From assembly GCA_020160935.1 (NCBI GenBank), contig JAIUPL010000004.1, positions 1-64,000 on the forward strand: DNA of 64,000 bases, written 5' to 3'. The stretch comes from Bacteroidota bacterium. GTDB lineage: Bacteria > Bacteroidota > Bacteroidia > Chitinophagales > Saprospiraceae. Numbering within the stretch: the stretch's first letter is position 1; every line of letters starts with the position of its first letter. Positions 111 to 52,894 of this stretch are shown in pieces. Under the pieces are notes generated by a model. It did not search any database and was not told where the DNA came from. It saw only the letters and a program-made list of their open reading frames with translations. A program made the position numbers and the translations under genes.

Positions 111-242
111 TTAGTTATTGGTTATCAGGGCAGTTAAGGGTTTATTATCACCAATGATTGACTACTTTATTAGTGAACCCAAATTATGCGAAGAAATAAA
201 CCCTTAACTGCCCTGATAACCAATAACTAATAACCAATAACC
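111..242. repeat. Intergenic palindrome, GGTTATCAGGGCAG family (copy 1)
   Basis: An inverted repeat with arms at 111-145 and about 196-230 reading TTAGTTATTGGTTATCAGGG inward, followed by GCAGTTAAGGGTTTAT. Further TTATTGG units extend the right arm to 242, eight bases before recG. The loop (146-195) is clearly related to the loop of the copy at 6734-6870 (shared ATGATTG and CGAAGAAATAAACCC), so this family is a dispersed repeat of about 135 bp. Bases 1-110 hold no gene I can support, only an imperfect direct repeat (GACTTTTTGAAACTC and GACTTAATGAAACTC). Confidence 0.85.
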
Positions 243-249
243 AGATTTT

Positions 250-2361
250 ATGCCCAATCTCGACTCCAACATCGAATACCTCAAAGGCGTCGGCCCACAG
301 CGGGCCGAAGTGCTCAAGAAGGAATTGGGTATATTTACTTGTAGGGATTTGCTGTTTCATTTTCCGTTCCGCTACATCGACCGGACGCAGTTTCACAGCA
401 TTCGCGATATACACAACGAGGGTGAGCAAGTGCAGGTTCGCGGCATTCTACGCCGCCTCGAAACCGTGGGTGAAGGCCGGGCACGGAGGCTGGTAGGCAG
501 CCTGCGCGACGAAACCGGGGTCATGGAACTCGTATGGTTTCAAGCCATTCAATGGCTCGAAAAATCGCTGCAGGTAGGCAAGGAATACGTGGTATTCGGG
601 CGGGTGAATGAATTCAACGGCCGTTTCAACATCACCCACCCCGAAATGGAAGAGGCCGCCAGCACAGAAAACGGCGGTGCACCGGCCCGAACCTACGACC
701 CCGTTTACCCCAGCACCGACAAACTCACCCAAAAAGGCCTGGATGCCAAAGGCCTGCGCAAACTCCTGCGCGCCCTGATCGATCAGATTGCGCCGACCGA
801 ACTTCCCGAAAACCTGCCCGACTACCTGCTGGCACAGTACAAACTCGTCGGCCGCTGGCAGGCGCTTTCCAAAATACATTTTCCGGAAAACCGCGCCGAA
901 CTCGACGCCGCCACCCGACGCCTGAAATTTGAGGAATTGTTTTTCCTGCAATTGCGGCTGCTACAAATCCGAACCCGCCGAAAAGACACCATACGCGGCT
1001 TTGTGTACAGCAAAATCGGGGCGTATTTCAACCGATTTTTTCAGGAAAAACTGCCTTTTGAACTGACCGGGGCCCAAAAACGCGTGCTCAAGGAAATCCG
1101 CTCCGACCTGGCTTCCGGCAAACACATGAACAGGCTGGTGCAGGGCGACGTGGGTTCGGGCAAAACCGTCGTGGCCCTGATGACCATGCTCATGGCCATC
1201 GATAACGGCTTTCAGGCCACGCTGATGGCGCCGACGGAAATACTTGCCCAGCAGCATTTTGCCAATATCAGCGAACTGGTGGGCGAACTTGGTATTCAGG
1301 TCGGCTTTTTGTCGGGTACGGTAAAAGGTAAAAAACGCGAAGCCATTCTTGCCCAACTGGCTTCCGGTGAAATGCACATTGTGGTTGGCACCCACGCCCT
1401 CATCGAAGACTGGGTGCAGTTTCAAAACCTGGGTATCAGCGTCATCGACGAGCAGCATCGCTTCGGCGTGGAGCAGCGCGCCCGCCTTTGGGCCAAAAAC
1501 CCGGCCGGGCCGCCGCATGTGCTGGTGATGACCGCCACACCCATTCCGCGTACCCTCGCCATGACTTTGTATGGCGACCTCGACGTGTCGGTGATCGACG
1601 AATTGCCGCCAGGCCGCAAGCCTATCACCACGAAGCACTACACCGAACACCATCGCCTGCGCGTGCAGGGGTTCATGCGCGAGGAAATTGCCAAAGGCCG
1701 CCAGGTGTATGTGGTATATCCCATGATCGAGGAAACGGAAACGATGGACCTGCAAAACCTCATGTCAGGTTTTGAAGCGCTTAGCCGCGATTTTCCTATG
1801 CCAGAATACCAGATTTCCATTGTACATGGCAAAATGAAAGCCGCCGACAAGGATTATGAAATGCAGCGTTTCATCAAACGCGAAACGCAGATCATGGTGG
1901 CCACCACCGTTATTGAAGTGGGGGTGAATGTGCCCAATGCTTCGGTAATGATCATTGAAAATGCCGAACGTTTCGGGCTGTCGCAATTGCACCAGTTGCG
2001 GGGCCGCGTAGGCCGCGGCGCCGAACAGTCGTACTGCCTGCTCCTTACCAGTTTCAAACTCAGCACCGAAGGCCGCGAACGCATCCGTACTATGTGCGAA
2101 ACCAACGACGGATTTGTCATTGCTGAAGTCGATCTGCGCCTCCGCGGCCCTGGCAATATTGAAGGTACCCAGCAAAGTGGTATGCTGCATTTTCGCCTGG
2201 CCGATCTGGCCCGCGACGGGCAAATTCTTTCGGCGGCCCGCGACATTGCACTGAATGTACTGGAAAAAGACCCTGCGCTGGCAGCGCCCGAACATGCCCG
2301 GCTGAAGCAACACCTGGCCTCGGAAAGCAGGGATGCAAAGGTGTGGAGTCGGATTTCTTAA
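250..2361 (+). CDS. recG: ATP-dependent DNA helicase RecG
   Basis: A superfamily 2 helicase that regresses stalled replication forks and processes branched recombination intermediates. The 703-residue protein has the RecG layout: an N-terminal OB-fold/wedge region (about 1-200), then two RecA-like motor domains. Walker A is GDVGSGKT (299-306), the DExx box is DEQH (400-403), and TATPIPRT follows as motif III. Motif VI is QLHQLRGRVGRG, and the C-terminal RLRGPGNIEGTQQSG is typical of RecG. Length is normal for the family. The ATG lies eight bases after an intergenic palindrome. The gene converges on gatA with a four-base gap and no terminator. With recR and recO it makes three recombination genes in this window. 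Confidence 0.97.
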   Translation: MPNLDSNIEYLKGVGPQRAEVLKKELGIFTCRDLLFHFPFRYIDRTQFHSIRDIHNEGEQVQVRGILRRLETVGEGRARRLVGSLRDETGVMELVWFQAIQWLEKSLQVGKEYVVFGRVNEFNGRFNITHPEMEEAASTENGGAPARTYDPVYPSTDKLTQKGLDAKGLRKLLRALIDQIAPTELPENLPDYLLAQYKLVGRWQALSKIHFPENRAELDAATRRLKFEELFFLQLRLLQIRTRRKDTIRGFVYSKIGAYFNRFFQEKLPFELTGAQKRVLKEIRSDLASGKHMNRLVQGDVGSGKTVVALMTMLMAIDNGFQATLMAPTEILAQQHFANISELVGELGIQVGFLSGTVKGKKREAILAQLASGEMHIVVGTHALIEDWVQFQNLGISVIDEQHRFGVEQRARLWAKNPAGPPHVLVMTATPIPRTLAMTLYGDLDVSVIDELPPGRKPITTKHYTEHHRLRVQGFMREEIAKGRQVYVVYPMIEETETMDLQNLMSGFEALSRDFPMPEYQISIVHGKMKAADKDYEMQRFIKRETQIMVATTVIEVGVNVPNASVMIIENAERFGLSQLHQLRGRVGRGAEQSYCLLLTSFKLSTEGRERIRTMCETNDGFVIAEVDLRLRGPGNIEGTQQSGMLHFRLADLARDGQILSAARDIALNVLEKDPALAAPEHARLKQHLASESRDAKVWSRIS

Positions 2362-2365
2362 GCGC

Positions 2366-6726: not shown

Positions 6727-6733
6727 CGTTATC

Positions 6734-6870
6734 GGTTATCTGTTATTGGTTATCAGGGCAGTTAAGGGTTTATGATCACCTATGATTGGCCACTCCATCA
6801 GTGATACCAAATTATTCGAAGAAATAAACCCTTACCTGCCCTGATAACCAATAACAGATAACTGATAACC
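6734..6870. repeat. Intergenic palindrome, GGTTATCAGGGCAG family (copy 2)
   Basis: Begins seven bases after the TonB receptor stop. Arms lie at 6734-6773 and about 6823-6870. The loop is homologous to that at 146-195, so the two are copies of one element. Both arms here carry CTGTTATTGG, while both arms of copy 1 carry TAGTTATTGG: the arms have changed together. Confidence 0.88.
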
Positions 6871-6896
6871 ATCAAAGAATTTGGATACAGATTTCA

Positions 6897-6961: not shown

Positions 6962-7180
6962 AGAGGTGAGAGGGTGAGAGAGTGAGAGATGTGAGAGGGT
7001 GAGAGATGTGAGAGGGTGAGAGATGTGAGAGAGGTGAGAGAGTGAGAGATGTGAGAGAGTGAGAGTTCGTAGAGTTGACCGCTTTTGATTGGCATGTTGA
7101 TTCTATAACGGAGCGGTACACTCTACGGACTCTCACATCTCTCACCCTCTCACTCTCTCACTCTCTCACTCTCTCTCTAT
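6961..7180. repeat. Intergenic palindrome, GTGAGAG family
   Basis: The left arm is a run of GTGAGAG/GATGTGAGAGA units (6963-7067) leading into core CGTAGAGTTGACCGCT. The right core AGCGGTACACTCTACGG (from 7111) leads into TCTCACATCTCTCACCC units up to about 7178. The spacer of about 30 bp is unique. The right arm stops ten bases before the truC start codon, so here a palindrome abuts a 5' end. Confidence 0.88.
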
Positions 7181-7188
7181 CTTTACGC

Positions 7189-10325: not shown

Positions 10326-11525
10326 ATGGATATCAAAGAACGTATACTGGAACTTGCCCGCCAATACCACCCCTACAGCATCGAGCAGCGCCGATACCTG
10401 CACCAGCACCCGGAATTGTCGTTTGAGGAAGTGCAAACCAGCCGGTACATTGCCTCGCAATTGCGCGATGCAGGCATAGAACATCGGCAAGGCGTGGGCG
10501 GCCACGGTATTGTGGCGCTCGTAAAAGGTCGTCAGCCCCATAAACGCGTCGTTGCATTGCGCGCCGATATGGATGCGCTGCCCATAGAAGAAGCCAACAA
10601 TGTGCCCTATAAAAGTCTGAACAATGGCGTCATGCACGCCTGCGGGCACGATGTGCATTCCGCATCCCTGCTGGGTGTGGCGCGTATTCTGCACGACCTG
10701 CGCGACACATTCGAAGGTACCATCAAATGCATTTTTCAGCCCGGCGAAGAACGGCTACCCGGCGGCGCATCCATTATGATCAAAGACGGCGTGCTGGAGA
10801 AACCTAAACCTGCAAGCATTTTTGCCCAGCACGTACACCCGCCACTGCGCGCAGGCATGGTTGGTTTCCGGCCGGGGATGTACATGGCCTCTTCCGACGA
10901 ATTGTTTGTCACGGTAAAAGGAAAAGGTGGACACGGCGCCATGCCACACGAATGCATCGACCCGATCGTCATCACATCCCAGATCGTGCTGTCGCTCCAG
11001 CAAATTATCAGCCGGTACTGTGATCCTGCCATTCCGGCAGTGCTGACGTTTGGCAAGATCAATTCCACCGGCGGCGCCACCAACGTCATTCCCAATGAGG
11101 TGAAAATGGAAGGCACTTTCCGCACCATGAACGAAAAATGGCGCAACGAAGCCCACAAACGCATGAAAAAAATGGCGGAAAGCATCGCCAAAAGCATGGG
11201 CGGCGCCTGTGAATTCAATATTGTCCGCGGTTATCCGGTATTGCACAACCATCCGGAATTGACTGCCCGCGCCCAAAAATGGGCGATTGAACTGTTGGGC
11301 AAAGACCGCGTGGTCGACTTGCCACTCCGTATGACGTCCGAAGATTTTTCCTACTTCGCACAAGCCATGCCCGCCTGTTTTTATCGCCTTGGTACCAGCA
11401 ACCCGGAACGCGGCATCCAGTCGGCCCTGCATACCAGCACCTTCGATATTGATGAAAAAGCACTGGAAACGGGGCTGGGGCTGATGAGTTGGATAGCCTT
11501 TCAAGAGGTGAGAGGTGAGAGGTGA
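10326..11525 (+). CDS. M20 family amidohydrolase (N-acyl-amino-acid hydrolase type)
   Basis: A zinc-dependent amidohydrolase of the M20D group, which cleaves N-acyl or hippurate-like amides. The 399-residue protein has LRADMDALPIEE, the metal site MHACGHDVHSA (Cys106, His108), QPGEERLPGGA with the catalytic Glu pair, a dimerisation domain (about 185-300) and the late TSEDFSYFAQ. No signal peptide is seen, so it is cytosolic. Odd feature: the last codons and stop, reading EVRGER-stop, lie in the GAGGTGAGAGGTGAGAGGTGA repeat that starts the palindrome at 11505, so the natural C terminus has been replaced or extended. It closes the rightward run that began at truC. Confidence 0.92.
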   Translation: MDIKERILELARQYHPYSIEQRRYLHQHPELSFEEVQTSRYIASQLRDAGIEHRQGVGGHGIVALVKGRQPHKRVVALRADMDALPIEEANNVPYKSLNNGVMHACGHDVHSASLLGVARILHDLRDTFEGTIKCIFQPGEERLPGGASIMIKDGVLEKPKPASIFAQHVHPPLRAGMVGFRPGMYMASSDELFVTVKGKGGHGAMPHECIDPIVITSQIVLSLQQIISRYCDPAIPAVLTFGKINSTGGATNVIPNEVKMEGTFRTMNEKWRNEAHKRMKKMAESIAKSMGGACEFNIVRGYPVLHNHPELTARAQKWAIELLGKDRVVDLPLRMTSEDFSYFAQAMPACFYRLGTSNPERGIQSALHTSTFDIDEKALETGLGLMSWIAFQEVRGER

Positions 11526-11762
11526 GAGAGAGTGAGAGAGTGAGAGAGTGAGAGGCGTAGAGTGTACCGCTTCGCTCTTAAATTTCTAGGCCACGAAAAC
11601 AACTATTTTATGGGTAAAGGTCCCCTCTGTGCCTCTCACATCTCTCACTCTCTCACATCTCTCACTCTCTCACTCTCTCACATCTCTCACTCTCTCACAC
11701 CTCTCACTCTCTCACATCTCTCACTCTCTCACATCTCTCACTCTCTCTCACCTCTCACCTCT
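11505..11762. repeat. Convergent-gap palindrome, GTGAGAG family
   Basis: The left arm starts inside the M20 gene (GAGGTGAGAGGTGAG), continues as GTGAGAGA units and ends with core CGTAGAGTGTACCGCT (11554-11570). The right arm (11631-11762) is a longer run of TCTCACATCTCTCAC units that ends inside the O-antigen-ligase gene. The right core is degraded. The element supplies the stop codons of both convergent genes. Confidence 0.9.
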
Positions 11763-13903: not shown

Positions 13904-13945
13904 ATCCCGAATTTTTCAATCATGAAAAATTCGGGATTTTTTTTG
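13904..13945 (+). terminator. Rho-independent terminator of the sigma gene
   Basis: A long perfect stem (ATCCCGAATTTTTCA paired with TGAAAAATTCGGGAT, loop ATCA) followed by about eight T. It begins 24 bases after the sigma factor stop and lies just before the GTTGATGAGG palindrome. The gene therefore has both an ordinary terminator and a palindrome. Confidence 0.92.
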
Positions 13946-13950
13946 AGAAG

Positions 13951-14119
13951 GTTGATGGGGTTGATAAAGTTGATAAGGGTTGATGAGGGTTGATGAGGGT
14001 TGATATTTAACGGCTCGGGTAGGAACATTTTACACTTCATCGAGCCGTTAAATATCAACCCTTATCAACCCTCATCAACCCTCATCAACACTTATCAACT
14101 CTATCAACCTCACCAACCC
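13951..14119. repeat. Convergent-gap palindrome, GTTGATGAGG family
   Basis: The left arm (13951-14017) is GTTGATGAGG-like units ending in ATATTTAACGGCTCG. The right arm (14041-14119) is the complement with more units. The loop (14018-14040) is unique. The inner core differs from the CGTAGAGT core of the other families, but the tandem-unit-then-core plan is the same. It lies between the sigma gene and the convergent SDR gene. Confidence 0.88.
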
Positions 14120-14125
14120 CCATCA

Positions 14126-14911
14126 TCACAGACTCCTCGTCCGCCCGCCATCCACCGGCAAATTGACACCATTGATATACGATGCGGCCGGGCTGGCCAA
14201 AAATGCTACGGCTGCCGCCACCTCGGCAGGCGCCGCAAAACGCCGGGCCGGTACATGGCTTTTAAATTGTTGTTCTACAGCCTCTTGTGAAAGCCCGGAG
14301 GCGGCTGCGCGTTTTTCTATAATTTCCGTGAGTCGGCCCGTAAGCGTATAGCCAGGCAGCACATTATTCACCGTGATGCCGTACTGCGCCGTTTCATTCG
14401 CCCAGGTTTTGGCCCAGCCGGCCACTGCCCAGCGCGTGGTGTTGGATACGCCCAGGTTGTCGAGCGGCTCTTTTACCGATGTGCTGATGATGTTGACGAT
14501 GCGGCCGAATCCCGCTTTTTTCATGCCAGGCAATACCGCCTGCGCCAACAAGTGGTTGCACAAGAGGTGATTGTGCCAGGCCTGCACAAATGCCGCTTCT
14601 GCCGCCTCGGTAATAGGCCCTCCCGGCGGACCGCCGGTATTGTTCACCAGGATGTGTATTTCCTGCTGTGTGAGCAATGCCTGTACTTTCTGCTGCAAAT
14701 CGGCACTGTCCGAAAAATCGACCACCAGATAGCCGTGTGTTTGGCCCTGACTGGTGTCGAGTGCCTGTACGGCCTCTTTCAGTGCCGTTTCCGTACGCGC
14801 CATAAGGGTTACGTTGGCGCCAAGCGCCGCCAGTTCGAGGGCTACCGCCCGGCCGATGCCTGCACTGGCGCCACCGACGAGGGCATTTTTTTGTAGTAGA
14901 GATAGGTTCAT
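14126..14911 (-). CDS. SDR-family oxidoreductase lacking the classical Tyr-Lys pair
   Basis: A short-chain dehydrogenase/reductase-fold protein of 261 residues. The nucleotide site GGASAGIG (13-20), the NNTGG motif (90-94) and the C-terminal YINGVNLPVDGGRT are conserved. The active site is not: in the usual S-x12-Y-x3-K pattern, Ser143 is present but Tyr and Lys are replaced by Ser156 and Arg160 (GVSNTTRWAVAGWAK). This SNxxR variant is known in a subfamily often named 3-oxoacyl-ACP reductase-like, and its chemistry may differ. The gene lies downstream of and in line with the TetR gene, 142 bases away, with a palindrome between. Confidence 0.85.
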   Translation of the reverse strand: MNLSLLQKNALVGGASAGIGRAVALELAALGANVTLMARTETALKEAVQALDTSQGQTHGYLVVDFSDSADLQQKVQALLTQQEIHILVNNTGGPPGGPITEAAEAAFVQAWHNHLLCNHLLAQAVLPGMKKAGFGRIVNIISTSVKEPLDNLGVSNTTRWAVAGWAKTWANETAQYGITVNNVLPGYTLTGRLTEIIEKRAAASGLSQEAVEQQFKSHVPARRFAAPAEVAAAVAFLASPAASYINGVNLPVDGGRTRSL

Positions 14912-14920
14912 AACTTTCGT

Positions 14921-15062
14921 GAGTCCTGAGTCGTGAGTCCTGAGTCGTAAGTCCTGAGTCCTGAGTCCGTAGAGTACACGTGATTACCCTTCAATCCCTT
15001 TTTATTAAAGCCAATAGTAATCAGGTGTACTCTACGGACTCAGGACCTACGACTCAGGACTT
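14921..15062. repeat. Intergenic palindrome, AGTCCTGAGT family (TetR/SDR)
   Basis: The left arm consists of GAGTCCTGAGTCGTGAGTCC-type units from 14921, then core CCGTAGAGTACAC. The right arm (about 15018-15062) reads GTAATCAGGTGTACTCTACG and then the complementary units. The right edge overlaps the TetR stop codon: LKS-stop is read from AAGTCCTGA. Confidence 0.9.
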
Positions 15063-19604: not shown

Positions 19605-19623
19605 TTCGAATATGAGTCATCCG

Positions 19624-19968
19624 GGATTTTTGGAGAAACATAAAACATCCCGAATTTTGGCCAAAGCCAGGGTTCGGAATCTTGTTTTTTGGAGCCTGTT
19701 TCCTGTAGATTTACCGCAGAGTAATTTCCCGCAGAACTCGCAGATTTACCCGCAGAACTCGCAGAACGTAGCGTACACCTACTTCTTCATATCGAGTACA
19801 CGGTGTACTCTACGTTCTGCGAGTTCTGCGGGTAAATCTGCGAGTTCTGCGGGAAATTACTCTACGGTAAATCTGCAGCAAATTACTCTAAGTGATCAGT
19901 TTGGGGCAGGAAAAATTCCGAACCAAAATTGGGGATGTCTCATGTTTCTCAAAAAAATCGGAATGGCT
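19624..19968. repeat. Nested convergent-gap palindrome, CCCGCAGAACTCGCAGA family (copy 1)
   Basis: Inner arms at 19708-19779 and 19802-19873 match over about 72 bases with two differences. They are tandem CCGCAGAACTCGCAGATT units leading to the core CGTAGAGTACACC (CGTAGCGTACACC on the left). Outer arms at 19624-19681 and about 19912-19965 are a second unrelated inverted repeat (GAGAAACAT, CATCCC, AATTTTGG, TTCGGAAT), the left with a 12-base insertion. Together they fill nearly the whole gap between the oxidoreductase and the PatB-like gene. Confidence 0.9.
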
Positions 19969-19982
19969 TATATTATTTTCCA

Positions 19983-34197: not shown

Positions 34198-34242
34198 CCC
34201 TTCTCGCCTCTCGCTTCTCACCTCTCGCTTCTCACCTCTCAT
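34198..34242. repeat. Half-palindrome, GTGAGAG family (folC 3' end)
   Basis: Units of CTTCTCGCCTCTCGCTTCTC on the plus strand. Read with folC they give TATGAGAGGTGAGAAGCGAG, and the TGA of folC is the start of the repeat. No matching second arm is seen. The unit GAGGTGAGAAGCGAGA is shared with the copy after comEC. Confidence 0.8.
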
Positions 34243-35539: not shown

Positions 35540-35570
35540 AAGTCCTGAGTCCTGAGTCGTAAGTCCTGAG
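35540..35570. repeat. Half-palindrome, AGTCCTGAGT family (5' of folC)
   Basis: Three AGTCCTGAG/AGTCGTAAGTCCTGAG units without core or second arm, just upstream of the folC ATG. The remaining 35571-35756 holds no feature I can support. Confidence 0.8.
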
Positions 35571-35756: not shown

Positions 35757-36412
<656 letters not shown>

Positions 36413-36418
36413 GTCCCT

Positions 36419-39746: not shown

Positions 39747-40160
39747 TTGAATTGGTTTTCTGCAAACCTATTCCCGGGTCTGACACCGTGCCGTTTTGCT
39801 CGACAACGCCGGATGAAAATGCGGCGAAAGGAGGGTTCTATCCGATTTAGGGGTAGTATTTCTTTAACAAAACCGTAACGTTTGGGGTAAATTATTGCTG
39901 TGCCTGCGCACCCTTTTAGCGTGAATGGAAAGCCGATGCAACAGATTCAGACATGTTTTTTTCAAAAAATAATCTTCAAAAAACAGGAACACTCTACGCT
40001 TTGTGACTTTGTGCCCTCCATGGTTACCACGGAGGGTACAAAGGACACTAAGCGTAGAGTGTACGAGAGTTAACTTTCACTTTGCGACGGCCGTAAGGCC
40101 ATAAAAAATCCGGTTAAATCCGAAAAAATCCGGTTCATCTGTTGACCAATCCCTCTACGG
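39747..40160. repeat. Intergenic region with inverted repeat of reversed core
   Basis: Arms at about 39989-40024 and 40026-40062: ACACTCTACGCTTTGTGACT at the outer left and AAGCGTAGAGTGT at the outer right, with inner GTGCCCTCC/GGAGGGTAC. The CGTAGAGT core is at the outside, the opposite of the other elements. Bases 40085-40140 hold GGCCGTAAGGCC and repeated AAAAAATCCGG, related to the block at 50606-50637. A lone CCCTCTACGG lies at 40151. No gene is visible between the NfeD-like and phhB genes. Confidence 0.75.
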
Positions 40161-40411: not shown

Positions 40412-40445
40412 TTAGAGGTGAGAGGTGAGAAGTGAGAGGTGAGAA
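40412..40445. repeat. Half-palindrome, GTGAGAG family (hflX/phhB)
   Basis: TTAGAGGTGAGAGGTGAGA plus AGTGAGAGGTGAGAAG on the plus strand, filling the gap between the hflX stop and the phhB start. The unit runs opposite to transcription, unlike the copies at comEC and folC. No second arm is seen. Confidence 0.82.
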
Positions 40446-40451: not shown

Positions 40452-41660
40452 TTACCAGGATTTTACCTGGTGGGGGTAGCGGACGACGTAGGCTTCCTTG
40501 ATGAGGCGGGTCATACGTTCGCGCAATTCTTCGATGCCTTCCTTGGTGTGTGCGGAAATGAAAATATTCTCTCCATAATTGTGCTGCAGGCGTTCGCGCA
40601 TTTCCGTTTCAATTTCCTTTTTCGTGTCGGCATCCACAAAATCATCGTAGTATTTACTTCGATACAGATCGATCTTGTTGAACACCATGAGCGTAGGTTT
40701 CTCGCCGGCGCCTAGTTCTTCGAGCGTTTTTTGCACCGTTTTTACATGGTCTTCAAACTGCGGATGGGCTACATCCACCACATGCAGCAGAATATCGCTT
40801 TCACGCACTTCGTCGAGCGTACTTTTAAAACTTTCGACCAGGTGGTGGGGCAATTTGCGGATAAAACCTACCGTATCGGATAGCAAAAACGGCATGGAGC
40901 CGAACACCACTTTCCGTACTGTTGTATCAAGTGTAGCGAAGAGTTTGTTTTCGGCCAGCACTTCCGATTTGCTCATCAGGTTCATCAAGGTGCTTTTGCC
41001 TACGTTGGTGTAACCCACGAGTGCCACACGAATGAGTTCGCCGCGCGTTTTGCGCTGGGTCTGGCTCTGCCGATCGATGTCCTTGAGTTTTTCCTCCAGC
41101 GATTTGATGCGGTACTGCACAAGGCGACGGTCTGTTTCAATCTGCGTTTCACCCGGGCCTCGCATACCAATACCACCGCGCTGCCGCTCCAGGTGGGTCC
41201 AGAGGCCACGCAGGCGCGGGAGCAGGTATTTCATTTGTGCCAGTTCGACCTGGGTTTTGGCCTGCGCCGTTTGGGCCCGGTTGGCAAAAATGTCGAGGAT
41301 AAGGGTAGAGCGGTCGACAATTTTCACTTTGAGGGCTTCTTCCAGAAAATTGGTTTGTTTGCCCGTGAGGTCGTCGTCAAAAATCACCATCGTAATCTCC
41401 TCATGCCGCTGAATGTATTGCTCCAGTTCCTGCACCTTGCCACTCCCGATAAAACTGCGGTGTTCGGGGTGCGCGAGGCGCTGGGTAAATCGTTTTACCG
41501 TTTCTGCGCCGGCCGTATGGGCCAGAAATTCGAGTTCGTCCATGTATTCATGTGCCTGCGTTTCCGTCACTTCGGGCGTTATCAGGCTGACCAGTATAGC
41601 ATATTCAGGCTCCTTTTTCAGGGCCGCGGTTTTTTCGTTGAGTGTCCAGTCCTTCGCCAT
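40452..41660 (-). CDS. hflX: Ribosome-associated GTPase HflX
   Basis: A translational GTPase that splits stalled or stressed 70S ribosomes. The 402-residue protein has an N-terminal HflX domain (about 1-190; FIGSGKVQELEQYI, RGPGETQIETDRR), the coiled linker (SLEEKLKDIDRQSQTQRKT) and a G domain: G1 GYTNVGKSTL, G3 DTVGF, G4 NKID and G5 SAHTKEG. Length is normal. Its start codon follows a TTGGTTATC-type repeat. Confidence 0.96.
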   Translation of the reverse strand: MAKDWTLNEKTAALKKEPEYAILVSLITPEVTETQAHEYMDELEFLAHTAGAETVKRFTQRLAHPEHRSFIGSGKVQELEQYIQRHEEITMVIFDDDLTGKQTNFLEEALKVKIVDRSTLILDIFANRAQTAQAKTQVELAQMKYLLPRLRGLWTHLERQRGGIGMRGPGETQIETDRRLVQYRIKSLEEKLKDIDRQSQTQRKTRGELIRVALVGYTNVGKSTLMNLMSKSEVLAENKLFATLDTTVRKVVFGSMPFLLSDTVGFIRKLPHHLVESFKSTLDEVRESDILLHVVDVAHPQFEDHVKTVQKTLEELGAGEKPTLMVFNKIDLYRSKYYDDFVDADTKKEIETEMRERLQHNYGENIFISAHTKEGIEELRERMTRLIKEAYVVRYPHQVKSW

Positions 41661-41661
41661 A

Positions 41662-41745
41662 TCGTTATTGGTTATCTGTTATTGGTTATCAGGGCGCGTA
41701 TTCCACGCCGAAAGGTATCGCCCTGCGCGCCAATAACTGTAACCC
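41662..41745. repeat. Partial palindrome, GGTTATCAGGGC family (copy 3)
   Basis: ATTGGTTATCTGTTATTGGT and TATCAGGGCGCG on the left share the arm of the copies near recG and 6.7 kb; CGCGCCAATAACTGTAACC closes it imperfectly. The inner part (CGCCGAAAGGTATCGCCCTG) is different. It lies directly upstream of hflX. Confidence 0.75.
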
Positions 41746-41863: not shown

Positions 41864-43966
41864 ATGACTCAGCGGTACACCCCCTACCTGCGTTTCATCG
41901 TGCCCTTTGTATCCGGACTGGCCGTGGGTGGCTGGATCGATCTACCGCTGCGATACCTCGGGCCTATTCTCCTCATTGGCGCGTTGCTGGCTGCCTGGCT
42001 GGCGATTCAGAAAATTGCGTACCGATACCGCTGGCTTTTTGGAGCCTACATTTACCTCCTGCTGTTTTTTGCCGGGTATTTTCATTGCACGGCGCACAAT
42101 GAACTGCGTCGAAACCGCCATTATGCCGCACACCTTACTGCACAGCGGCAATTTTTTACCGGCACGGTGTACCAGTCGCCTTCGAAAGGTGCCAAACTGA
42201 AAGTACCCGTTCAGGTGGAAGCCCTGGGCGCTTCACCCGATTCCATGCAAAGCGTAAGCGGCAACCTGCTGCTTTTTCTCAATATCGACACCATTACCGA
42301 CAAGATCCGATATGGCGACCGCATTGGCGCGTATGCCATGGTGCAGCCCTGCGAAGGCCCCAAAAACCCCGACGCCTTCGATTACAGGCGTTATTTGCAT
42401 TTCCAGAATATTCATTATCAGGCTTTTGTGAAAACCGATTCGGTGGCAGTGCTTTCGCACGGTCATGGGTATTTGCTGTGGCGCATGGCCTATGAAAGCC
42501 GCGACCGATTGCTGGACCTGCTGCACAAATACTTCCCTACCGACGACGAGTATGCCGTAGCGTCGGCCTTGTTGGTGGGCTACACCGACGATTTGTCGGA
42601 TGAATTGCGGGCTGCGTATGCACAAACGGGCTCGATGCATGCGCTGGCTGTGTCGGGTACGCATGTGGGTATGTTGTATGTAGGGCTGATGTTTTTGCTG
42701 GCTCGGTTCCGATTCCGGGGGCGCTGGAAACTGCTGGAAACGGTGCTGATTTTATTGGCCATCTGGGCATTCACATTCCTGACAGGCGCTACGGCGTCGG
42801 TGCTGCGGGCATCAGTCATGTTCAGCACGTACATGTTGGGGAAAGCGTTTCACCGCGATGCGCCGGCCTGGAACGTGCTGCCTGCATCCGCGTTCGGGCT
42901 GCTGCTGTACAATCCGTATTTTTTGTTCGATGTAGGCTTTCAGTTGTCATATGCGGCGGTGGCGGGGATGGTATTTTTTTATGCGCGTTTGTACAAATTA
43001 TTTCCGCCCATGCCGCGCTGGGCCGACGAAGGCCTGAAAGTATTGCTGGTAGGTGCGGCTGCGCAATTGGGTACGCTGCCGCTCACCTTGTTCTATTTTC
43101 ATCAGTTTCCGGTGTATTTCTGGCTGTCGGGCTGGATTGTGGTGCTGGGTGGTGCTATTTTTTTGTGGGGCGGCGCGCTGCTGGTATTGCTCGATGTATG
43201 GGCGCCTGTGTTGGCCGACTGGCTGGGTAAAGCCTTGTATTACATGCTCTGGGCCATCAACAAGGCCATTTTTTTCATTCAGACCTTACCGGGCAGCGTC
43301 ATTTCCAATATCTGGATTGCCGCTTGGGTCGTGGCTGCCTTGTATATCGGCATCGGGCTGATCGGGAGCGCCATGGTGTATCGAAAAGGGCGGTACGTGC
43401 TGGCGTTGATGGGGCTGTTTTGCCTCTTGGGCTTGTATCGGGTTTCCACGCTTTCAGTAAAAAGTATTCACCGCGAAATCGTGGTGTATCACCTGAACAA
43501 ACAAAGCCTTATTGATTTTCGGGAGGGCAGAGAAGTGGTGAGTTGGTCGGATACGCTGGCTGCCAACAAAGAGATTTTTACAGCACAGAGCCACCGCATT
43601 ACAGGTGCTGTGCGTCGCCTGACACCTTTGCATTTCGACGATGATACGGTTCTTTTCAAGCAAAACCTGCTGATTGACTGGCCTTTTGCACAGTTTTTCG
43701 ACACCCGAATAGCGGTAGTGGAGCAGGCCGGGCAGTTACAAGGCGCACACCCGGTCGACACCGATATTCTACTGCTGCGGAAAAATCCGAAAGTAACCAT
43801 TGCCGAGTGCCGCGAACATTTTCATTTCAGCCAGATCGTTTTCGACGCTTCCAACAGCCAACGCCAAACGGAACGCTGGCGCCGCGAATGCGAGGCGGCT
43901 GGATGGCCGTATTACGATGTGAGGCGGCAGGGAGCGTTCGTGTTAGAGGTGAGAGGTGAGAGGTGA
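41864..43966 (+). CDS. comEC: ComEC/Rec2-family DNA uptake channel protein
   Basis: The inner-membrane channel for single-stranded DNA in natural transformation. The 700-residue protein has N-terminal helices, a DUF4131 beta region (about 95-170; FFTGTVYQSPSKGAKLKV) and the Competence domain (about 225-510; ALAVSGTHVGMLYVGL, LTGATASVLRASVMF, LFDVGFQLSYAAVAG). The C-terminal part (about 540-695) lacks the HxHxDH zinc motif of the usual MBL nuclease, as in other Bacteroidota. Odd feature: the protein ends in VLEVRGER-stop, read from the GTGAGAG repeat. The ComEA-like gene follows by 37 bases. Confidence 0.93.
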   Translation: MTQRYTPYLRFIVPFVSGLAVGGWIDLPLRYLGPILLIGALLAAWLAIQKIAYRYRWLFGAYIYLLLFFAGYFHCTAHNELRRNRHYAAHLTAQRQFFTGTVYQSPSKGAKLKVPVQVEALGASPDSMQSVSGNLLLFLNIDTITDKIRYGDRIGAYAMVQPCEGPKNPDAFDYRRYLHFQNIHYQAFVKTDSVAVLSHGHGYLLWRMAYESRDRLLDLLHKYFPTDDEYAVASALLVGYTDDLSDELRAAYAQTGSMHALAVSGTHVGMLYVGLMFLLARFRFRGRWKLLETVLILLAIWAFTFLTGATASVLRASVMFSTYMLGKAFHRDAPAWNVLPASAFGLLLYNPYFLFDVGFQLSYAAVAGMVFFYARLYKLFPPMPRWADEGLKVLLVGAAAQLGTLPLTLFYFHQFPVYFWLSGWIVVLGGAIFLWGGALLVLLDVWAPVLADWLGKALYYMLWAINKAIFFIQTLPGSVISNIWIAAWVVAALYIGIGLIGSAMVYRKGRYVLALMGLFCLLGLYRVSTLSVKSIHREIVVYHLNKQSLIDFREGREVVSWSDTLAANKEIFTAQSHRITGAVRRLTPLHFDDDTVLFKQNLLIDWPFAQFFDTRIAVVEQAGQLQGAHPVDTDILLLRKNPKVTIAECREHFHFSQIVFDASNSQRQTERWRRECEAAGWPYYDVRRQGAFVLEVRGER

Positions 43967-43976
43967 GAAGCGAGAC
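43943..43976. repeat. Half-palindrome, GTGAGAG family (comEC 3' end)
   Basis: TTAGAGGTGAGAGGTGAGA then GGTGAGAAGCGAGA, encoding the last residues and stop of comEC. It shares its left edge with the copies at 40412 and 11760 (minus strand). Confidence 0.85.
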
Positions 43977-48569: not shown

Positions 48570-50338
48570 AACGCGGCCTTTTTTTCTTATATCTGTTGTG
48601 GGCGCTCGGGTCAAAAAATGCCGGGGCGCAGGAAGTGGGCGCTACCTGGGTTGTTCCGCCCGTTCTGAGCATCGACGACAAATTCGACATTTCTCCGAAG
48701 GAAGATGACAGCCGGTTTATCGGCACGAGGGGAAAATTCCGCGGGGTGTTCGATAAAACAGGGAAAGCCATCTTGCCTGTTGAAAATCAGGACATTATAC
48801 TGATGCCCTGCGGGTGGATGGTGGTTTCCAAACAATATGGTCAACGCTTGTTGTACAATGCGCAGGCGGTGTGTATGAGCCAGCCGTATGATAATTTTAA
48901 TGCGTACAGCAACGGCACTGCTCTTGTGTATAAAAACGGACTGTGCGGCCTGATCAACATGCAGGGAGAGGAACTGGTGCCGGTTCAATATGAAAAATTC
49001 AGGATGGAGGAGAACACCTACGTTTTTACAGGGCCGGATGGAGAACGGCGTTTGGAAGCGCCGCCTGAAATCGTGCCACCCAATGTAAAGCGCGTGGAAG
49101 ACGCCAAGGCCCGATCAACCCTGGCCGGGCATTACCTCTTCAAAGGCAACGGGCAGTTTACCACGGGTTTGCTCAACCTGAAACGCGACACGGTGGTTCC
49201 ACCCATATACCGCTTCGAACAAATACATCCGTCGGGCATGATCACCGCTACCCTGGATGGAAAAACATTTGGCGTGATCGACACGCGCCACCGTACGCTG
49301 TACTCCTTTACGGCGGAACAACTGGGCAAATGGACCAAAAGTGGTCTGTTGCCCGTGCGTTTTGCCAAAAAATGGGCCCTTATTCGCTTCCCGGCAGGCG
49401 ATATTGTATTTCCGTTTGGTGAATACGAATACATTGAAACCTATGACCCGGAAAAAGACCTGTTTATCGTTTCCAAAAACAAGTTGCAAGGCCTGATCAA
49501 CCTGAAAAAGAAAGTGCTTTTGCCGCTGGAGTACAAGCATATCAGCCAGTACGACCATGTAACGACCCAACTCATCGATGCCCAGGATAAGTTCGGGTTT
49601 TGTTACCGGCCCACCGGTTTTATCCAAAAACCACAGTTTAAATACCTCCGAAACCTGAACGATACCCTGGTGATCGTAGCCACCGATTCCCTGAGCGGGG
49701 TGATGAATGCCAAAACAGGGAAGTACGTGATTCCGATGGACAGGTATCAGATCGAGGCGATTGGGGAATATTTTGACAGCCACAAACCCCAGGACTGGCG
49801 CGCCCGCACCACCTTCGAACGACATATTCACGGGCTCTACGACCGGCGTGGGCGCCTCGTCATTCCACATGACACGGCCGACATCGTCATGGTACCCAAA
49901 GAAAAAACGTTCTGGATTTGCTACCAGGACGAAGACTCTTCAAAAGTGTGGGAGATGAGGGACTTGCAGGGTAAAACACTGCAAACCATGCCCAAAAAGG
50001 GCGCTGATTTAAAAAAAATCGGCTATTTCCCTTCCCTTTACAGATACGGGAACGGGGTGAAAACAGCCATGAAAATCACCTACAAGGATGCGCAAGGGCA
50101 GGAACAGTTTTATTCCATCATCAGTGCCGATATGCAGGAAAACCTGCGCCGGGTGCAGTTGGGCAAACTTTGGGGTTTTGTCGATCCCGATGGGAATATC
50201 GTTATCCAGCCGGTTTTTGAAAAAGTGGAAGTCAGCAAGGACGGGTATGTAAAGGTAAAATACCAGGGGAAATGGGGCGTGCTGCAAAACCCTCGGTATG
50301 ATTACTTCGAGGAGTTTGAAAAGAATATTAAGAAATAG
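48566..50338 (+). CDS. Secreted WG-repeat protein
   Basis: A 590-residue exported protein with a short signal peptide (KRGLFFLYLLWALGSKNAGA). WG-type repeats recur along the length (FRGVFDKTGKAILPVE, LCGLINMQGEELVPVQY, FGVIDTRHRTLYSF, LWGFVDPDGNIVIQPVF, KWGVLQNPRY). It overlaps the previous gene by four bases and has a family member on the other side of it (45113-46627). The function of these proteins is unknown. The stop codon is three bases before the nested palindrome. Confidence 0.85.
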   Translation: MKRGLFFLYLLWALGSKNAGAQEVGATWVVPPVLSIDDKFDISPKEDDSRFIGTRGKFRGVFDKTGKAILPVENQDIILMPCGWMVVSKQYGQRLLYNAQAVCMSQPYDNFNAYSNGTALVYKNGLCGLINMQGEELVPVQYEKFRMEENTYVFTGPDGERRLEAPPEIVPPNVKRVEDAKARSTLAGHYLFKGNGQFTTGLLNLKRDTVVPPIYRFEQIHPSGMITATLDGKTFGVIDTRHRTLYSFTAEQLGKWTKSGLLPVRFAKKWALIRFPAGDIVFPFGEYEYIETYDPEKDLFIVSKNKLQGLINLKKKVLLPLEYKHISQYDHVTTQLIDAQDKFGFCYRPTGFIQKPQFKYLRNLNDTLVIVATDSLSGVMNAKTGKYVIPMDRYQIEAIGEYFDSHKPQDWRARTTFERHIHGLYDRRGRLVIPHDTADIVMVPKEKTFWICYQDEDSSKVWEMRDLQGKTLQTMPKKGADLKKIGYFPSLYRYGNGVKTAMKITYKDAQGQEQFYSIISADMQENLRRVQLGKLWGFVDPDGNIVIQPVFEKVEVSKDGYVKVKYQGKWGVLQNPRYDYFEEFEKNIKK

Positions 50339-50340
50339 GA

Positions 50341-50699
50341 GGTTGGGATTCTGTTCGGCTTCGCCTCACGAATAGGGGATTTGGGATTGGGGCGGGTGAA
50401 GCGGATTTTTGTAAGGTATTTCCCGTAGAGTGTTTTCCGTAGAGTATTTTCCCGCAGATCTCGCAGATTTTCCCGCAGAATTCGCAGAACGTCGAGTTGA
50501 CCTGTTTCTTCAAATCGATAACAATGTGTACTCTACGTTCTGCGAATTCTGCGGGAAAATCTGCGAGATCTGCGGGAAAATACTCTACGGAAAATACATT
50601 TCAAGTGGCCGACAGGCCAAAAAAATCCGCCTGATCCGCATCATCCGCCCAATCCCAAATCCCCCATTCGTGAGGCGAAGCCGAACAGAATCACAACCC
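50341..50699. repeat. Nested convergent-gap palindrome, CCCGCAGAACTCGCAGA family (copy 2)
   Basis: Outer arms at 50341-50409 and about 50632-50699 pair over GATTCTGTTCGGCTTCGCCT and CACGAAT, GGGGATTTGGGATTGGG, GCGGATTTTT. Inner arms at 50433-50502 and 50525-50596 are CCCGCAGATCTCGCAGATTT units with core CGTCGAGTTGACC on the left and the complement of CGTAGAGTACACA on the right. The palindrome fills the whole 361-base gap, from one convergent stop codon to the other. Both arms of this copy carry ATCTCGCAGATTTTCCC; both arms of the copy at 19.7 kb carry AACTCGCAGATTTACCC. Confidence 0.93.
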
Positions 50700-52661
50700 T
50701 CACTTCCTCAAACTCGGATCAATCGCATACGCCCGTTCAAACCATTCTCCCGACTTCTCCGGCTGGCCCATGTCCTTGTACGCCGAGCCGATATAAAACA
50801 GCAGCGTGGCATTGTTGGGTTCGTATTTCAGGCCTTCCTGCCATTGTTCGATGGCGGCCGGGAAATTCTTTTTCATAGCCAGCACAGCGCCGAGGTTGCG
50901 GCGCGCGTCGATGAAGCGCGGGTCGTACTGAATGGATTTCCGGTACACCTCTTCGGCTTTTTCCAGTTGGCCGCGCATGAAATAGATGAATCCCATGTTC
51001 GACAACACTTTGGCGTCGTTGGGGCGGTATTTAATGGCTACCTGATAGTCGTCGAAGGCTTTGTCGTACTGGCCCAGTCGGAAATAGGCCAGGCCGCGGC
51101 TGCCATAGGCGTCGTGGTATTCCGGATACAGCTCGATGGTGCGGTTGTAGGCTTCAACACCTTTTTCCACCTGAGCGCGGTCCTTGAGTTCGCCTGTTTT
51201 TTCATCGAGGCCATTTTTGGTCACCTCAAGGGCATTGTGGTAGTTGAGTTTGGCGCAATTGGGCGAAGTAGGCACATCGGCGGCGTACAGCGAAGCGCTG
51301 TCGTACCAGGCGCCATTGCGGAATACGGTTTTCAGGCTGTAAGCCATAATCAGGAAACCTGCCAGACCCCACACGAGTGTGCCTTTGTTGTTGGGATTCC
51401 AGATTTGAGTCAGGTCATTGATTTTGAATGCTTTACAAATTGCCCATGCCAGCGCAAATGCAAAACCCAGCGAAGGAATGTACTGCAAACGCTCGCCGTA
51501 GGAAGTGCCGATCAGCACCAGCACATTGCTGAAGAGCGAAAACGCGATCAGATAAAAAAGGATGGCGAACGACAGAAAATGCTTTTTACCGAGGTTCATT
51601 AAAGCCCAGATGAACATGCCTGCGTACACGACAAACCCTGCAATGGCTTTCCATTCGCCCCAACCCACAGGCTGCACCTGCGGATAACCCATATCGCACA
51701 CCAGCGGATGCGGGAAAAGAAGCACCTGCAAATATTTGCCGCACATCATAAACGCGGAGGCCAGGCGATCGACGCCCGGATGCGCCGAACGGTACGCCGG
51801 ATCGGTGGTGGCTACAATAAAATTGTCGAGAATGGAAAAAACTTCCTGATATGCCTGAGTCCCCAGCACCTGTTTGCGCACCAGCAGGAAAATGCCTGCC
51901 GGAATGAGCATCAGCGCTGCTGTGGAAATGATTTTCGACACCGGTTTGTCCGAAAAAAACCACATCGTAAGCGGAAACAAAGCCAGGAATGTAATGGCGC
52001 TTTCCTTGGAAAACATCGCCAGCCCGTACCAGATCAGCGCGCCGATCAAATAACCCGCTTTTTGCAGATCCATGTATTTCCAGATCGCATTCAGTGCCAG
52101 GGTGCCGAACAGCAAGGCCAGAATTTCATCGCGGCTTTTGATGTTGGCTACTACTTCCGTATGTATCGGATGCGCCATGAAAAACAGCACAGCCATGGCG
52201 GTCAGTGCCGGCGGATAATTTACCAAAATACGCCGCCAGGTATTCCACAGCACATAACCCGTGATGGCGTACAGCAGCACGTTCATGAAGTGCATGAGAA
52301 ACGGCTTGTCGGGCGCCATTTGCCATTCAAAGGCAAACATGGCCAGCGAAAACGGGCGATACAACGACCCCGGGCTGTTCCAACTACCATAACGGTATTC
52401 GGTGCTGAAAATAATTCCAAGGTTTTTCAGGCCGCCTTTTGTCACCCAGTTTTCCTTGATAGCCGAAAAATCGTCGAGGGTGTACTGGTGTCCCAGCGTA
52501 TTGGCGTACAGGATAAAACCCAGTGCCGCGGCCAGTAGGCCCACCCACATCGCGCCGGAAATGGCTGGAACCGCAGGGGCCGATGCCCTGGGCTCGGCCG
52601 ATTTTTTTGGTGTCTGTTTCTGGTAAACGGGCTGCTGTTTTGCCGGTCTTTGCTTTGCCAT
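50700..52661 (-). CDS. GT-C-fold membrane glycosyltransferase-like protein with C-terminal TPRs
   Basis: A 653-residue membrane protein resembling the TMTC/DUF1736 group of O-mannosyltransferase-like proteins. A basic Gln/Ala-rich N terminus leads into about eleven membrane helices (about 38-480); the first periplasmic loop has the GT-C acidic motif YTLDDFSAIKENW. Four tetratricopeptide repeats follow (about 520-650; GLAYFRLGQYDKAFDDYQVA, AVLAMKKNFPAAIEQW). The start is ATG 52661 (MAKQRPAKQQP); a longer reading runs into the palindrome. Substrate unknown. It is downstream of mnmA and the FNR-like gene. Confidence 0.85.
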   Translation of the reverse strand: MAKQRPAKQQPVYQKQTPKKSAEPRASAPAVPAISGAMWVGLLAAALGFILYANTLGHQYTLDDFSAIKENWVTKGGLKNLGIIFSTEYRYGSWNSPGSLYRPFSLAMFAFEWQMAPDKPFLMHFMNVLLYAITGYVLWNTWRRILVNYPPALTAMAVLFFMAHPIHTEVVANIKSRDEILALLFGTLALNAIWKYMDLQKAGYLIGALIWYGLAMFSKESAITFLALFPLTMWFFSDKPVSKIISTAALMLIPAGIFLLVRKQVLGTQAYQEVFSILDNFIVATTDPAYRSAHPGVDRLASAFMMCGKYLQVLLFPHPLVCDMGYPQVQPVGWGEWKAIAGFVVYAGMFIWALMNLGKKHFLSFAILFYLIAFSLFSNVLVLIGTSYGERLQYIPSLGFAFALAWAICKAFKINDLTQIWNPNNKGTLVWGLAGFLIMAYSLKTVFRNGAWYDSASLYAADVPTSPNCAKLNYHNALEVTKNGLDEKTGELKDRAQVEKGVEAYNRTIELYPEYHDAYGSRGLAYFRLGQYDKAFDDYQVAIKYRPNDAKVLSNMGFIYFMRGQLEKAEEVYRKSIQYDPRFIDARRNLGAVLAMKKNFPAAIEQWQEGLKYEPNNATLLFYIGSAYKDMGQPEKSGEWFERAYAIDPSLRK

Positions 52662-52701
52662 ATGAGAATCCTTCGTAAAAACGTGGACGAAGGTAAGGAA
52701 A

Positions 52702-52894
52702 AAGTCCTGAGTCGACAGTCCTAAGTCCTGAGTCCGTAGATTACACCTGATTACACTTGGTATTCCTTTCAATAAGTCCTGAGTCCTAAGTCTGTAGAGT
52801 ACACCTGCTTATGTTTAGCATTCATTTTAATCGATGTCAAACATAAGCAGGTGTACTCTACAGACTTAGGACTCAGGACTCAGGACTGTCGACT
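52702..52894. repeat. Intergenic palindrome, AGTCCTGAGT family (double left arm)
   Basis: A perfect 42-base inverted repeat at 52775-52816 and 52839-52880 with a 22-base loop: AGTCCTGAGTCCTAAGTC, core TGTAGAGTACACC, inner TGCTTATGTTT. A second, older-looking left half (52705-52760: AGTCCTGAGTCGACAGTCC, core CGTAGATTACACC) precedes it. Outer GTCGACAGTCC pairs with GGACTGTCGAC. It ends four bases before the FNR-like stop codon. Confidence 0.95.

What the first reader, a model, noticed from the sequence alone, without database searches (positions are those of the whole stretch)
111..52894. A modular superfamily of intergenic palindromes with tandem-repeat arms and a shared inner core
Seen: about 18 loci carry inverted repeats or half-repeats whose outer arms are tandem 7-20-base units. 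Arm units differ (GTGAGAG, AGTCCTGAGT, CCCGCAGAACTCGCAGA, GGTTATCAGGGCAG, GTTGATGAGG, GAATGAT). Yet three unrelated arm families (GTGAGAG at 7.0 and 11.5 kb; AGTCCTGAGT at 15.0, 24.0 and 52.8 kb; CCCGCAGA at 19.7 and 50.5 kb) lead to the same core CGTAGAGTACACC or close variants, followed by a locus-specific inner stem. This outer unit / common core / private inner stem plan is not a standard terminator, REP, CRISPR or MITE known to me. Inference: an undescribed class of gene-end element, perhaps a bidirectional terminator, mRNA 3' shield or mobile module.
Basis: partly seen in the sequence, partly recalled or inferred. Interest (0 to 1): 0.9.

Follow-up and report, generated by a model that had tools for sequence, protein, structure and literature searches.

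The report
Fast-swapping palindromes at bacterial gene ends
In one small group of Saprospiraceae bacteria many gaps after genes hold long mirror-image DNA hairpins built from short repeated words; between sister species the positions tend to stay while the sequences are often replaced and remain mirror-like, which points to a copying process acting on DNA.

Summary
The core GTAGAGTACAC occurs 326 times in this 5.8 Mb genome (reversed control 0). In 856 kb, 128 long inverted repeats were found (random sequence: 0); 114 fit about 15 tandem-word arm families. Three families share the core symmetrically, a fourth carries it outside its arms; the rest lack it. Core palindromes occur in this species, its four nearest relatives and once in a sixth genome, of 41 examined.

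Elements avoid genes, crowd convergent gaps and abut stop codons. In 177 orthologous gaps against a sister with about 88% identical DNA, inverted-repeat positions agree (32 shared, 9 expected), but 10 of 32 changed arm family, and same-family orthologues are mostly no closer than paralogues. Paired changes keep arms complementary, half of them transversions. Transcript-strand mismatches show no G·U excess (41 GT, 54 AC), whereas terminators of the same genome do (38, 5). So the symmetry looks kept in DNA, not selected as RNA pairing. No T-run follows elements. Y1 transposase and reverse transcriptase do not track them; other transposases were not searched.

Best reading: self-renewing gene-end palindromes, copied between hairpin sites by template switching (inferred). 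Function at RNA 3' ends is unproven.

The parts
107..234 (.). GTTATY-armed palindrome, 40-nt perfect arms, ends 15 nt before the gene called at 250
6728..6869 (.). GTTATY-armed palindrome directly after the stop at 6726; in sister G028 the inner part is replaced by a GGATT-armed hairpin inside kept GTTATY arms
6962..7175 (.). GTGAGAG-armed palindrome with core variants, right after an intrinsic-terminator-like hairpin and T-run; G028 has an AGTC-armed element in the same place
11504..11762 (.). GTGAGAG-armed palindrome with core GTAGAGTGTACC on its left side, in a convergent gap; AGTC element in G028
13943..14129 (.). GTTGATGAGG-armed palindrome after an intrinsic-terminator-like hairpin; GGATT element in G028
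14917..15061 (.). AGTC-armed palindrome with core CGTAGAGTACAC
19609..19974 (.). CGCAGA-armed palindrome (19699-19882, 81-nt arms) inside an outer inverted ATCCCGAATTTTGG layer
24018..24151 (.). AGTC-armed palindrome, 60-nt arms 98% complementary, spans a convergent gap; the G028 orthologue of the same family shows paired changes
34200..34241 (.). half-array, heptads of the GTGAGAG type (read on the minus strand), no partner arm
35541..35570 (.). half-array AGTCCTG, no partner arm, still well aligned with G028
36225..36417 (.). GAATGAT heptads as inverted arms
39986..40065 (.). CTTTGTG-armed hairpin whose cores lie outside the arms, next to what looks like the right half of a CGGATT palindrome
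40414..40444 (.). half-array AGAGGTG
41660..41690 (.). half-array of the GTTATY type, nearly unchanged in G028
43945..43975 (.). half-array AGAGGTG; G028 has a longer array with a core here
50328..50711 (.). nested: outer GGGATTTGGGATTGGGCGG/CGGATT palindrome with a CGCAGA palindrome (50430-50597) lodged beside its centre
52702..52894 (.). nested AGTC elements: an intact hairpin (52775-52880) lodged in the loop of an older AGTC hairpin whose right half is mostly lost; G028 has only one hairpin here

Best explanation
These are non-coding DNA palindromes (median 142 bp) kept at the 3' ends of genes, which renew themselves as DNA. SHOWN: positions tend to persist between sister species while elements are replaced, in about a third of shared gaps by another arm family; arms stay mirror copies through changes on both sides, transversions included; new hairpins sit inside older ones. 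INFERRED: each palindrome extrudes a hairpin that stalls replication; the nascent strand switches template to another palindrome in the cell, or to its own opposite arm, copies one arm and folds back on itself to write the second. This makes the second arm a copy of the first, multiplies tandem units by slippage, swaps families at a fixed place and needs no transposase or target duplication. The gene-end location then reflects either tolerance (no promoter is hit, the stop codon may even lie in the element) or a structural use such as a bidirectional transcript end or supercoil sink; the evidence does not decide.
For: Position: 177 orthologous gaps, 40 with an inverted repeat in each species, 32 shared, 9.0 expected if independent of gap type. 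Swap: 10 of 32 shared gaps changed arm family, 8 wholly and 2 partly. Turnover: in 27 same-family orthologue pairs the orthologue is the best same-family match in G028 in 9 (two of these have no competitor), and a G000 paralogue scores higher in 22; plain tandem and divergent gaps have median identity 0.85-0.86, same-family palindrome gaps 0.66-0.69. Symmetry: 72 base pairs changed on both sides and still complementary, 37 transitions and 35 transversions, of 875 aligned pairs in 18 elements (about 7 would be expected from independent changes by my rough estimate). AGTC arms of one element agree 0.878, of different elements 0.769, 0 of 2000 permutations in G000 (21 elements); 0.913 against 0.878, 3 of 2000, in G028 (17 elements). 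DNA, not RNA: GT 41 against AC 54 mismatches on the transcribed strand of tandem-gap elements and 17 against 21 in G028, while terminator hairpins give 38 against 5, Fisher p 3e-7 for 38:5 against 41:54. Nesting: 52702-52894, 50328-50711 and G028's 6726 gap. Y1_Tnp counts in the five clade species lie within the range of the other congeners; reverse transcriptase has no match in four of the five.
Against: No replication intermediate, fork stall or switching event was seen; template switching is inferred from end products. The paired changes could also come from replacement by a transposed palindromic copy. Identical 46-bp core-to-core sequences on contigs C7, C25 and C34 and the nested hairpins fit transposition as well, and transposase families other than Y1 were not searched. 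One gap (C17:206656) comes near a clean presence/absence: G028 has a GTGTTTT element where G000 has 15 other bases. Half-arrays are not all slow: the 8 'half-array both' tandem gaps have median identity 0.54, gaps counted, and the 4 plain convergent gaps 0.45. In the 18 elements the broken pairs lean slightly to GT (26 GT, 19 AC on the transcript strand of tandem gaps; 26 and 17 in the other gaps, strand arbitrary), and G028's convergent and divergent elements show 23 GT, 11 AC on an arbitrary strand. SbcD is below its cut-off in 37 of 42 congeners, so its loss does not single out this clade.
Confidence: 0.4

Rival explanations
1. REPIN- or MITE-like non-autonomous mobile elements moved in trans by an unidentified transposase that favours gene ends or existing hairpins; replacement in place is insertion into an old element followed by loss of its arms.
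For: Identical 46-bp sequences at three loci; hairpins lodged in older ones with surviving outer halves; the core begins with GTAG, a conserved REP head (PMC2817692, PMC3733652, passages read); distribution between convergent and same-strand genes resembles REPs (PMC3733652).
Against: No clean empty site with duplication for a tandem-arm element in the 40 gap alignments that I printed (of 177), the nearest being C17:206656; an unrelated MITE shows one at two places with TTA on both sides (54782-54942; C17:178898 gap). Element ends are arrays of variable length. The two Y1_Tnp loci of G000 carry no GTAGAGT within about 1.5 kb and Y1_Tnp numbers do not follow the clade. In G028's 6726 gap both inner arms changed together inside kept outer arms. 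Other transposase families were not searched, so this rival is not excluded.
Confidence: 0.35
2. Functional gene-end elements (bidirectional terminators or 3' exonuclease barriers) maintained by selection for RNA hairpins, with sequences free to change.
For: 94 of 142 gene ends in convergent gaps of 80 bp or more have an element, 56 of 233 in tandem gaps; 109 of 139 stop-side edges of labelled elements overlap the stop or lie within 30 nt; gene ends that an element abuts have a hairpin plus T-run in 8 of 114, others in 48 of 225 (no element) and 12 of 36 (element further off).
Against: No G·U excess in two genomes against a clear one in terminators; no T-run after elements (12 of 228 ends, control windows 527 of 6870); some elements lie after a proper terminator-like hairpin (6930-6961; 13904-13944); 17 of 126 placed elements lie in divergent gaps; 35 of 41 examined congeners lack the core palindrome, so such ends are not a general need of the genus.
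Confidence: 0.2
3. Assembly artefact or chance low-complexity sequence.
For: Long palindromes and tandem repeats are hard to assemble.
Against: The core palindrome is found in four other deposits with their own accession prefixes and tandem-arm palindromes in G016, G006 and G031 stretches; one Markov-1 random realisation of the same length gives 0 inverted repeats against 128; the core has control count 0.
Confidence: 0.01

Closest known systems
REP / BIME / REPIN with RAYT transposases (PMC3733652: abstract, one section, passages; PMC2817692: passages; PMC3116915: abstract, passages)
   Same: Intergenic, many copies, two inverted halves that can form one hairpin, GTAG next to the hairpin in three arm families, mostly between convergent or same-strand genes, half-copies as remnants.
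   Different: Tandem-word arms of about 15 families, elements with a median of 142 bp against 20-40 bp REPs, no core beside the two Y1_Tnp genes, no G·U enrichment (PMC3733652 reports GT pairing in REP stems), family swaps in place.
Heptameric repeats (STRR) and small dispersed repeats of cyanobacteria (recalled: Mazel 1990, Jackman & Mulligan 1995, Elhai 2008; not read, the last looked up and not held), TAACTGA heptamers in Beggiatoaceae and Bacteroidetes (PMC4679880, abstract and one section read)
   Same: Intergenic heptad arrays; in the recalled work small hairpin repeats sit inside heptads, nest in one another and show compensatory changes.
   Different: TAACTGA arrays are direct repeats, in the best-studied genome mostly just before start codons; here heptads are mirrored arms at gene ends, with many word families in one genome and measured turnover between sister species.
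Concerted evolution of palindrome arms in nematomorph mitochondria (PMC6649704, passages read)
   Same: Paired changes keep both arms complementary; template switching is offered as one possible cause.
   Different: Those lie in coding genes of a mitochondrial genome; here dispersed bacterial intergenic families that also replace one another.
MITEs (recalled; PMC10969869 seen in a search listing only)
   Same: Short, non-coding, inverted repeats, dispersed.
   Different: Arms of variable length, no target duplication seen, no parent transposon known (not searched for).

Membership tests
REP/REPIN | GTAG (or CGTC) head next to each palindrome half | tested here: inconclusive
   GTAGAG mirrored in 48 of 194 elements, in three arm families only; CGTC not tested
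REP/REPIN | each half is a small palindrome of its own | tested here: not met
   TACTC partner of GAGTA in both halves of 4 of 30 core elements, in one half of 5, in none of 21; other small palindromes in the halves not tested
REP/REPIN | RAYT gene flanked by the same repeats | tested here: not met
   two Y1_Tnp matches in G000; no GTAGAGT in either 3.3-kb locus. Loose arm regexes hit somewhere in both loci and in one inverted repeat of L087 (1274-1406), whose printed arm is not an AGTC heptad
REP/REPIN | G·U pairs common in stems | tested here: not met
   GT 41, AC 54 in G000, 17 and 21 in G028; method control GT 38, AC 5 in terminators
MITE | target duplication at clean insertion sites | tested here: not met
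   none for tandem-arm elements in the 40 of 177 gap alignments printed; an unrelated MITE shows it
MITE | autonomous parent with the same ends | not tested
   no search for genes bracketed by arms; transposase families other than Y1_Tnp not searched
Intrinsic terminator | hairpin followed by a U-tract | tested here: not met
   12 of 228 element ends have 6 or more T in 10 nt, control windows 527 of 6870
Intrinsic terminator | ends transcription in vivo | not testable with these tools
   no RNA data
Cyanobacterial STRR/SDR | intergenic heptad arrays, small hairpin repeats nested in them (recalled definition) | tested here: inconclusive
   heptads and nesting met; common descent with cyanobacterial repeats not tested
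Integron attC | recombined by an integron integrase | not tested
   no integrase search made; considered from the layout alone

The most novel reading that the evidence does not exclude
A categorically new kind of genomic repeat: transposase-free, self-symmetrising palindromes that spread and replace one another by replication template switching between hairpin stall sites, so that gene-end positions persist while palindromes of any arm family can occupy them.
Probability: 0.27. Interest if true: 0.88.

Novelty: new variant of a known kind. Interest (0 to 1): 0.72.

Why it matters
Bacteria are thought to lose long palindromes (recalled; PMC3733652, section read, says such structures stall replication and are removed by SbcCD in E. 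coli). Here a genome carries about 15 long inverted repeats per 100 kb (128 in 856 kb), swaps many of them within the divergence of sister species and keeps them mirror-like. That gives a natural system for how palindromes arise, stay symmetric and move, and a test of whether gene ends in these bacteria are marked by structure rather than sequence.

Tried and rejected
RNA-level selection on stems: not supported by the mismatch test with its terminator control. The control's own shuffle gave too few hairpins to be a strong check (13 hairpins in 8 rounds over 636 regions: 5 GT, 2 AC, 12 other). RAYT link: not supported. Reverse-transcriptase link: no RVT_1 match in G028, G016, G006, G031 (97, 96, 95 and 89% complete), 4 in G000. 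Other transposase families: not searched. SbcD loss as the clade's cause: over the cut-off in 5 of 42 genomes and in none of the five clade species, so permissive at most; SbcC was not searched. A shared apical TTGGC/GCCAA motif: TGGC..GCCA in 16 of 177 labelled elements against 725 of 20000 random windows; too weak, dropped. Phage or plasmid carriage: no match in viral contigs for the exact core pair, nor in plasmids or phages, these two with one AGTC element only. Rfam at gathering cut-offs: only a tRNA in the window. Wider spread: AGTC-armed pattern in 1 of 394 other Bacteroidota genomes, GTTATY-armed in 1 of 198 other genomes of the family (its two printed matches look like chance); neither sample held G028, G016, G006 or G031. 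Literature: searches listed no title or abstract on tandem-arm palindromes in Saprospiraceae; some listed only the top 10-20 of up to 430 hits, and the library is open-access PMC only.

Limits: gene calls are my own hexamer caller. Arm families are regex labels, loosely set and loosened further after (so counts differ a little between and 50/60). The gap at C17:83579 is labelled AGTC in both species by a loose hit though its arms differ. The inverted repeats counted include unlabelled ones: of the 8 gaps with one only in G000, two are the MITE and two others (110988, 205004) have no arm label. One search used 18 of the 22 gaps that labels SAME (36239, 52550, 201923, 217732 left out) and only the best inverted repeat of each. 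One search counts the double gap 252432 four times and compares fixed 72-nt central windows, so offset centres lower scores. One search left out elements with neither arm label nor core; searches left out unlabelled ones.
Full report
WHAT IS THERE. Within the window 17 places by my count carry tandem 7-20 nt words; the survey lists 11 long inverted repeats in the window. The core GTAGAGTACAC is exact 326 times in the genome (160 and 166 by strand; reversed control 0). Of the 100 places listed, many come as facing pairs with 24 to about 47 nt between; some are single or face outward.

HOW FAR IT GOES. In 856 kb of this genome (15%), 128 inverted repeats with arms of 24 nt or more were found; one Markov-1 random realisation gave 0. 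114 of 128 fit one of 15 arm-family regexes, and 43 have a core-like motif in or near them. Words are mostly heptads (AGTCCTG, GTGAGAG, GTTATYR, GTGAGTA, AGTTATG, GGCAAGG, GAATGAT), some 8 to 12 nt. Labelled elements have a median length of 142 bp (10-90%: 106-221). The core is mirrored in three families; CTTTGTG-armed hairpins carry it outside their arms. So the 'one core' part of the finding holds for three to four of about fifteen families. Positions just inside the core are private but mirrored, clearly in G000 and weakly in G028.

WHO HAS IT. Of 41 genomes of the genus, 6 have the core palindrome (33 in G000, 33 in G028, 6 in G016, 5 in G006, 2 in G031, 1 in G040). By one protein the nearest relatives of the window genome are G028 (98%), G016 (94%), G031 (93%) and G006 (92%), the others 84% or less. 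Thus the core palindrome marks this five-species clade plus one copy outside it. A scan of a collection of 84,980 species found the longer exact pair in 23 stretches, all titled Saprospiraceae or Bacteroidota, from four accession prefixes. Sampled stretches: G016 11 inverted repeats in 26 kb, G006 5 in 13 kb, G031 3 in 12 kb; outside the clade G022 1 and G009 2 in 20 kb each, the latter without tandem arms by eye.

WHERE IT SITS. No element centre lies in a called gene (0 of 128). 51 lie in convergent, 58 in tandem, 17 in divergent gaps and 2 at contig edges; of gene ends in gaps of 80 bp or more, 94 of 142 in convergent and 56 of 233 in tandem gaps have one. Of 139 stop-side edges of labelled elements 44 overlap the stop codon and 65 lie within 30 nt; of 87 start-side edges 1 overlaps and 17 lie within 30 nt. 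Ends that an element abuts seldom have a hairpin plus T-run (8 of 114), others more often (12 of 36 with an element further off, 48 of 225 with none). Some elements follow a terminator-like hairpin, as at 6930-6961 and 13904-13944.

HOW IT CHANGES. In 177 orthologous gaps between G000 and G028, 32 have inverted repeats in both, 8 only in G000, 8 only in G028, 129 in neither. At ten shared places the arm family differs, wholly at eight and partly at two: for instance GTGAGAG against AGTC at 6.7-7.2 and 11.5 kb, GTTGAT against GGATT at 13.9 kb, GTTGAT against GTGTTTT at C17:134952. Even where the family is kept, the orthologue is the best same-family match in only 9 of 27 pairs and a paralogue in G000 is closer in 22. 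Plain tandem and divergent gaps are about 85% identical; palindrome gaps 66-69% when the family is kept and 27-51% when it differs; the 4 plain convergent gaps are also low, 45%. Two half-arrays in the window, at 35.5 and 41.7 kb, are still easily aligned, but half-arrays in tandem gaps are not uniformly conserved (median 0.54, 8 gaps), so I do not claim that turnover needs an intact palindrome.

WHAT KEEPS THE MIRROR. In 18 same-family orthologous elements (875 aligned pairs), 665 base pairs are unchanged, 72 changed on both sides and stay complementary, 119 are broken in one species by one change, and 19 are otherwise broken. About half of the double changes are transversions, which cannot pass through a G·U step. 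On the transcribed strand of tandem-gap elements the transition mismatches are 41 GT and 54 AC in G000 and 17 and 21 in G028. Terminator hairpins of the same genome give 38 GT and 5 AC, so the test can see RNA selection. Smaller subsets lean the other way without reaching that ratio: 26 GT and 19 AC in the tandem-gap part of the 18 elements, and 23 and 11 in G028's convergent and divergent elements, where the strand is arbitrary. I conclude that arms are copied from one another as DNA, or that each new copy is made as a palindrome.

MECHANISM. Nested cases show new hairpins inside older ones: 52702-52894, where G028 has a single hairpin; 50328-50711, where a CGCAGA element sits beside the centre of a CGGATT palindrome; and G028's version of the 6726 gap, where GTTATY outer arms are kept on both sides around a different inner hairpin. 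The last is hard to get by plain insertion into a loop, because both inner arms changed together. Template switching between hairpins, with fold-back copying, would explain position, swap, symmetry and lack of target duplications in one step. It is an inference: published work names template switching as one possible cause of concerted palindrome arms in another system (PMC6649704, passages read). Transposition by an unknown enzyme remains possible (0.35): 46-bp core-to-core sequences are identical on contigs C7, C25 and C34, and only the Y1 transposase family was searched.

AGAINST KNOWN KINDS. REPINs are the nearest in layout, but tested features fail: core repeats beside RAYT-type genes, small palindrome in each half in the form tested, G·U-rich stems. 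Target duplications fail in the 40 alignments inspected, with a real MITE as a working control. Intrinsic-terminator features fail for the T-run. Heptad arrays are known from cyanobacteria and others (PMC4679880 read in part; cyanobacterial work recalled), and small nested hairpin repeats in heptads were described in Nostoc (Elhai 2008, recalled, not held), which is the resemblance I would check first. I therefore call it a new variant of a known kind, dispersed intergenic palindromes, with a serious chance of something categorically new in how it spreads.

Noticed in passing
window 54782-54942: An ordinary-looking MITE with ends GAGCGTGTTTTAATT, TTA on both sides and absent from the same gap in G028; a second one in the gap at C17:178898, also absent from G028.
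   Followed up: partly
window 6857-6963: A 107-bp stretch between two palindromes is 97% identical in G028 against about 87% for neighbouring blocks and ends in a terminator-like hairpin; possibly a small RNA or leader. Rfam has no match at gathering cut-offs.
   Followed up: partly
window 19609-19974: CGCAGA palindromes often sit in an outer module ATCCCGAATTTTGG...GGTTCGGGAT with T-run, which also occurs alone in the C23:70795 gap of G000.
   Followed up: partly
window 39986-40065; L006: CTTTGTG-armed hairpins carry the core outside their arms, so the arm-core join is kept while inside and outside are exchanged.
   Followed up: no
G000 C21:120935-121032 and 121664-121759; L124 4501-4589: Another near-perfect palindrome family beginning TAGTGGTGGCATGGGA, also in G016, without tandem arms.
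   Followed up: no
L146 1515-1588 (genome G346, another family of the phylum): A short palindrome with AGTCTTG heptad arms far outside this clade; independent origin or chance is open.
   Followed up: no
genus of 42 genomes: SbcD is over its family cut-off in only 5 genomes; 33 have just a weaker match and 4, G000 among them, none.
   Followed up: partly
arm families of G000: The 5' arms are G-rich against C in 12 labelled families (mean skew 0.3-0.9) but not in the AGTC, CGCAGA and CTTTGTG families.
   Followed up: no
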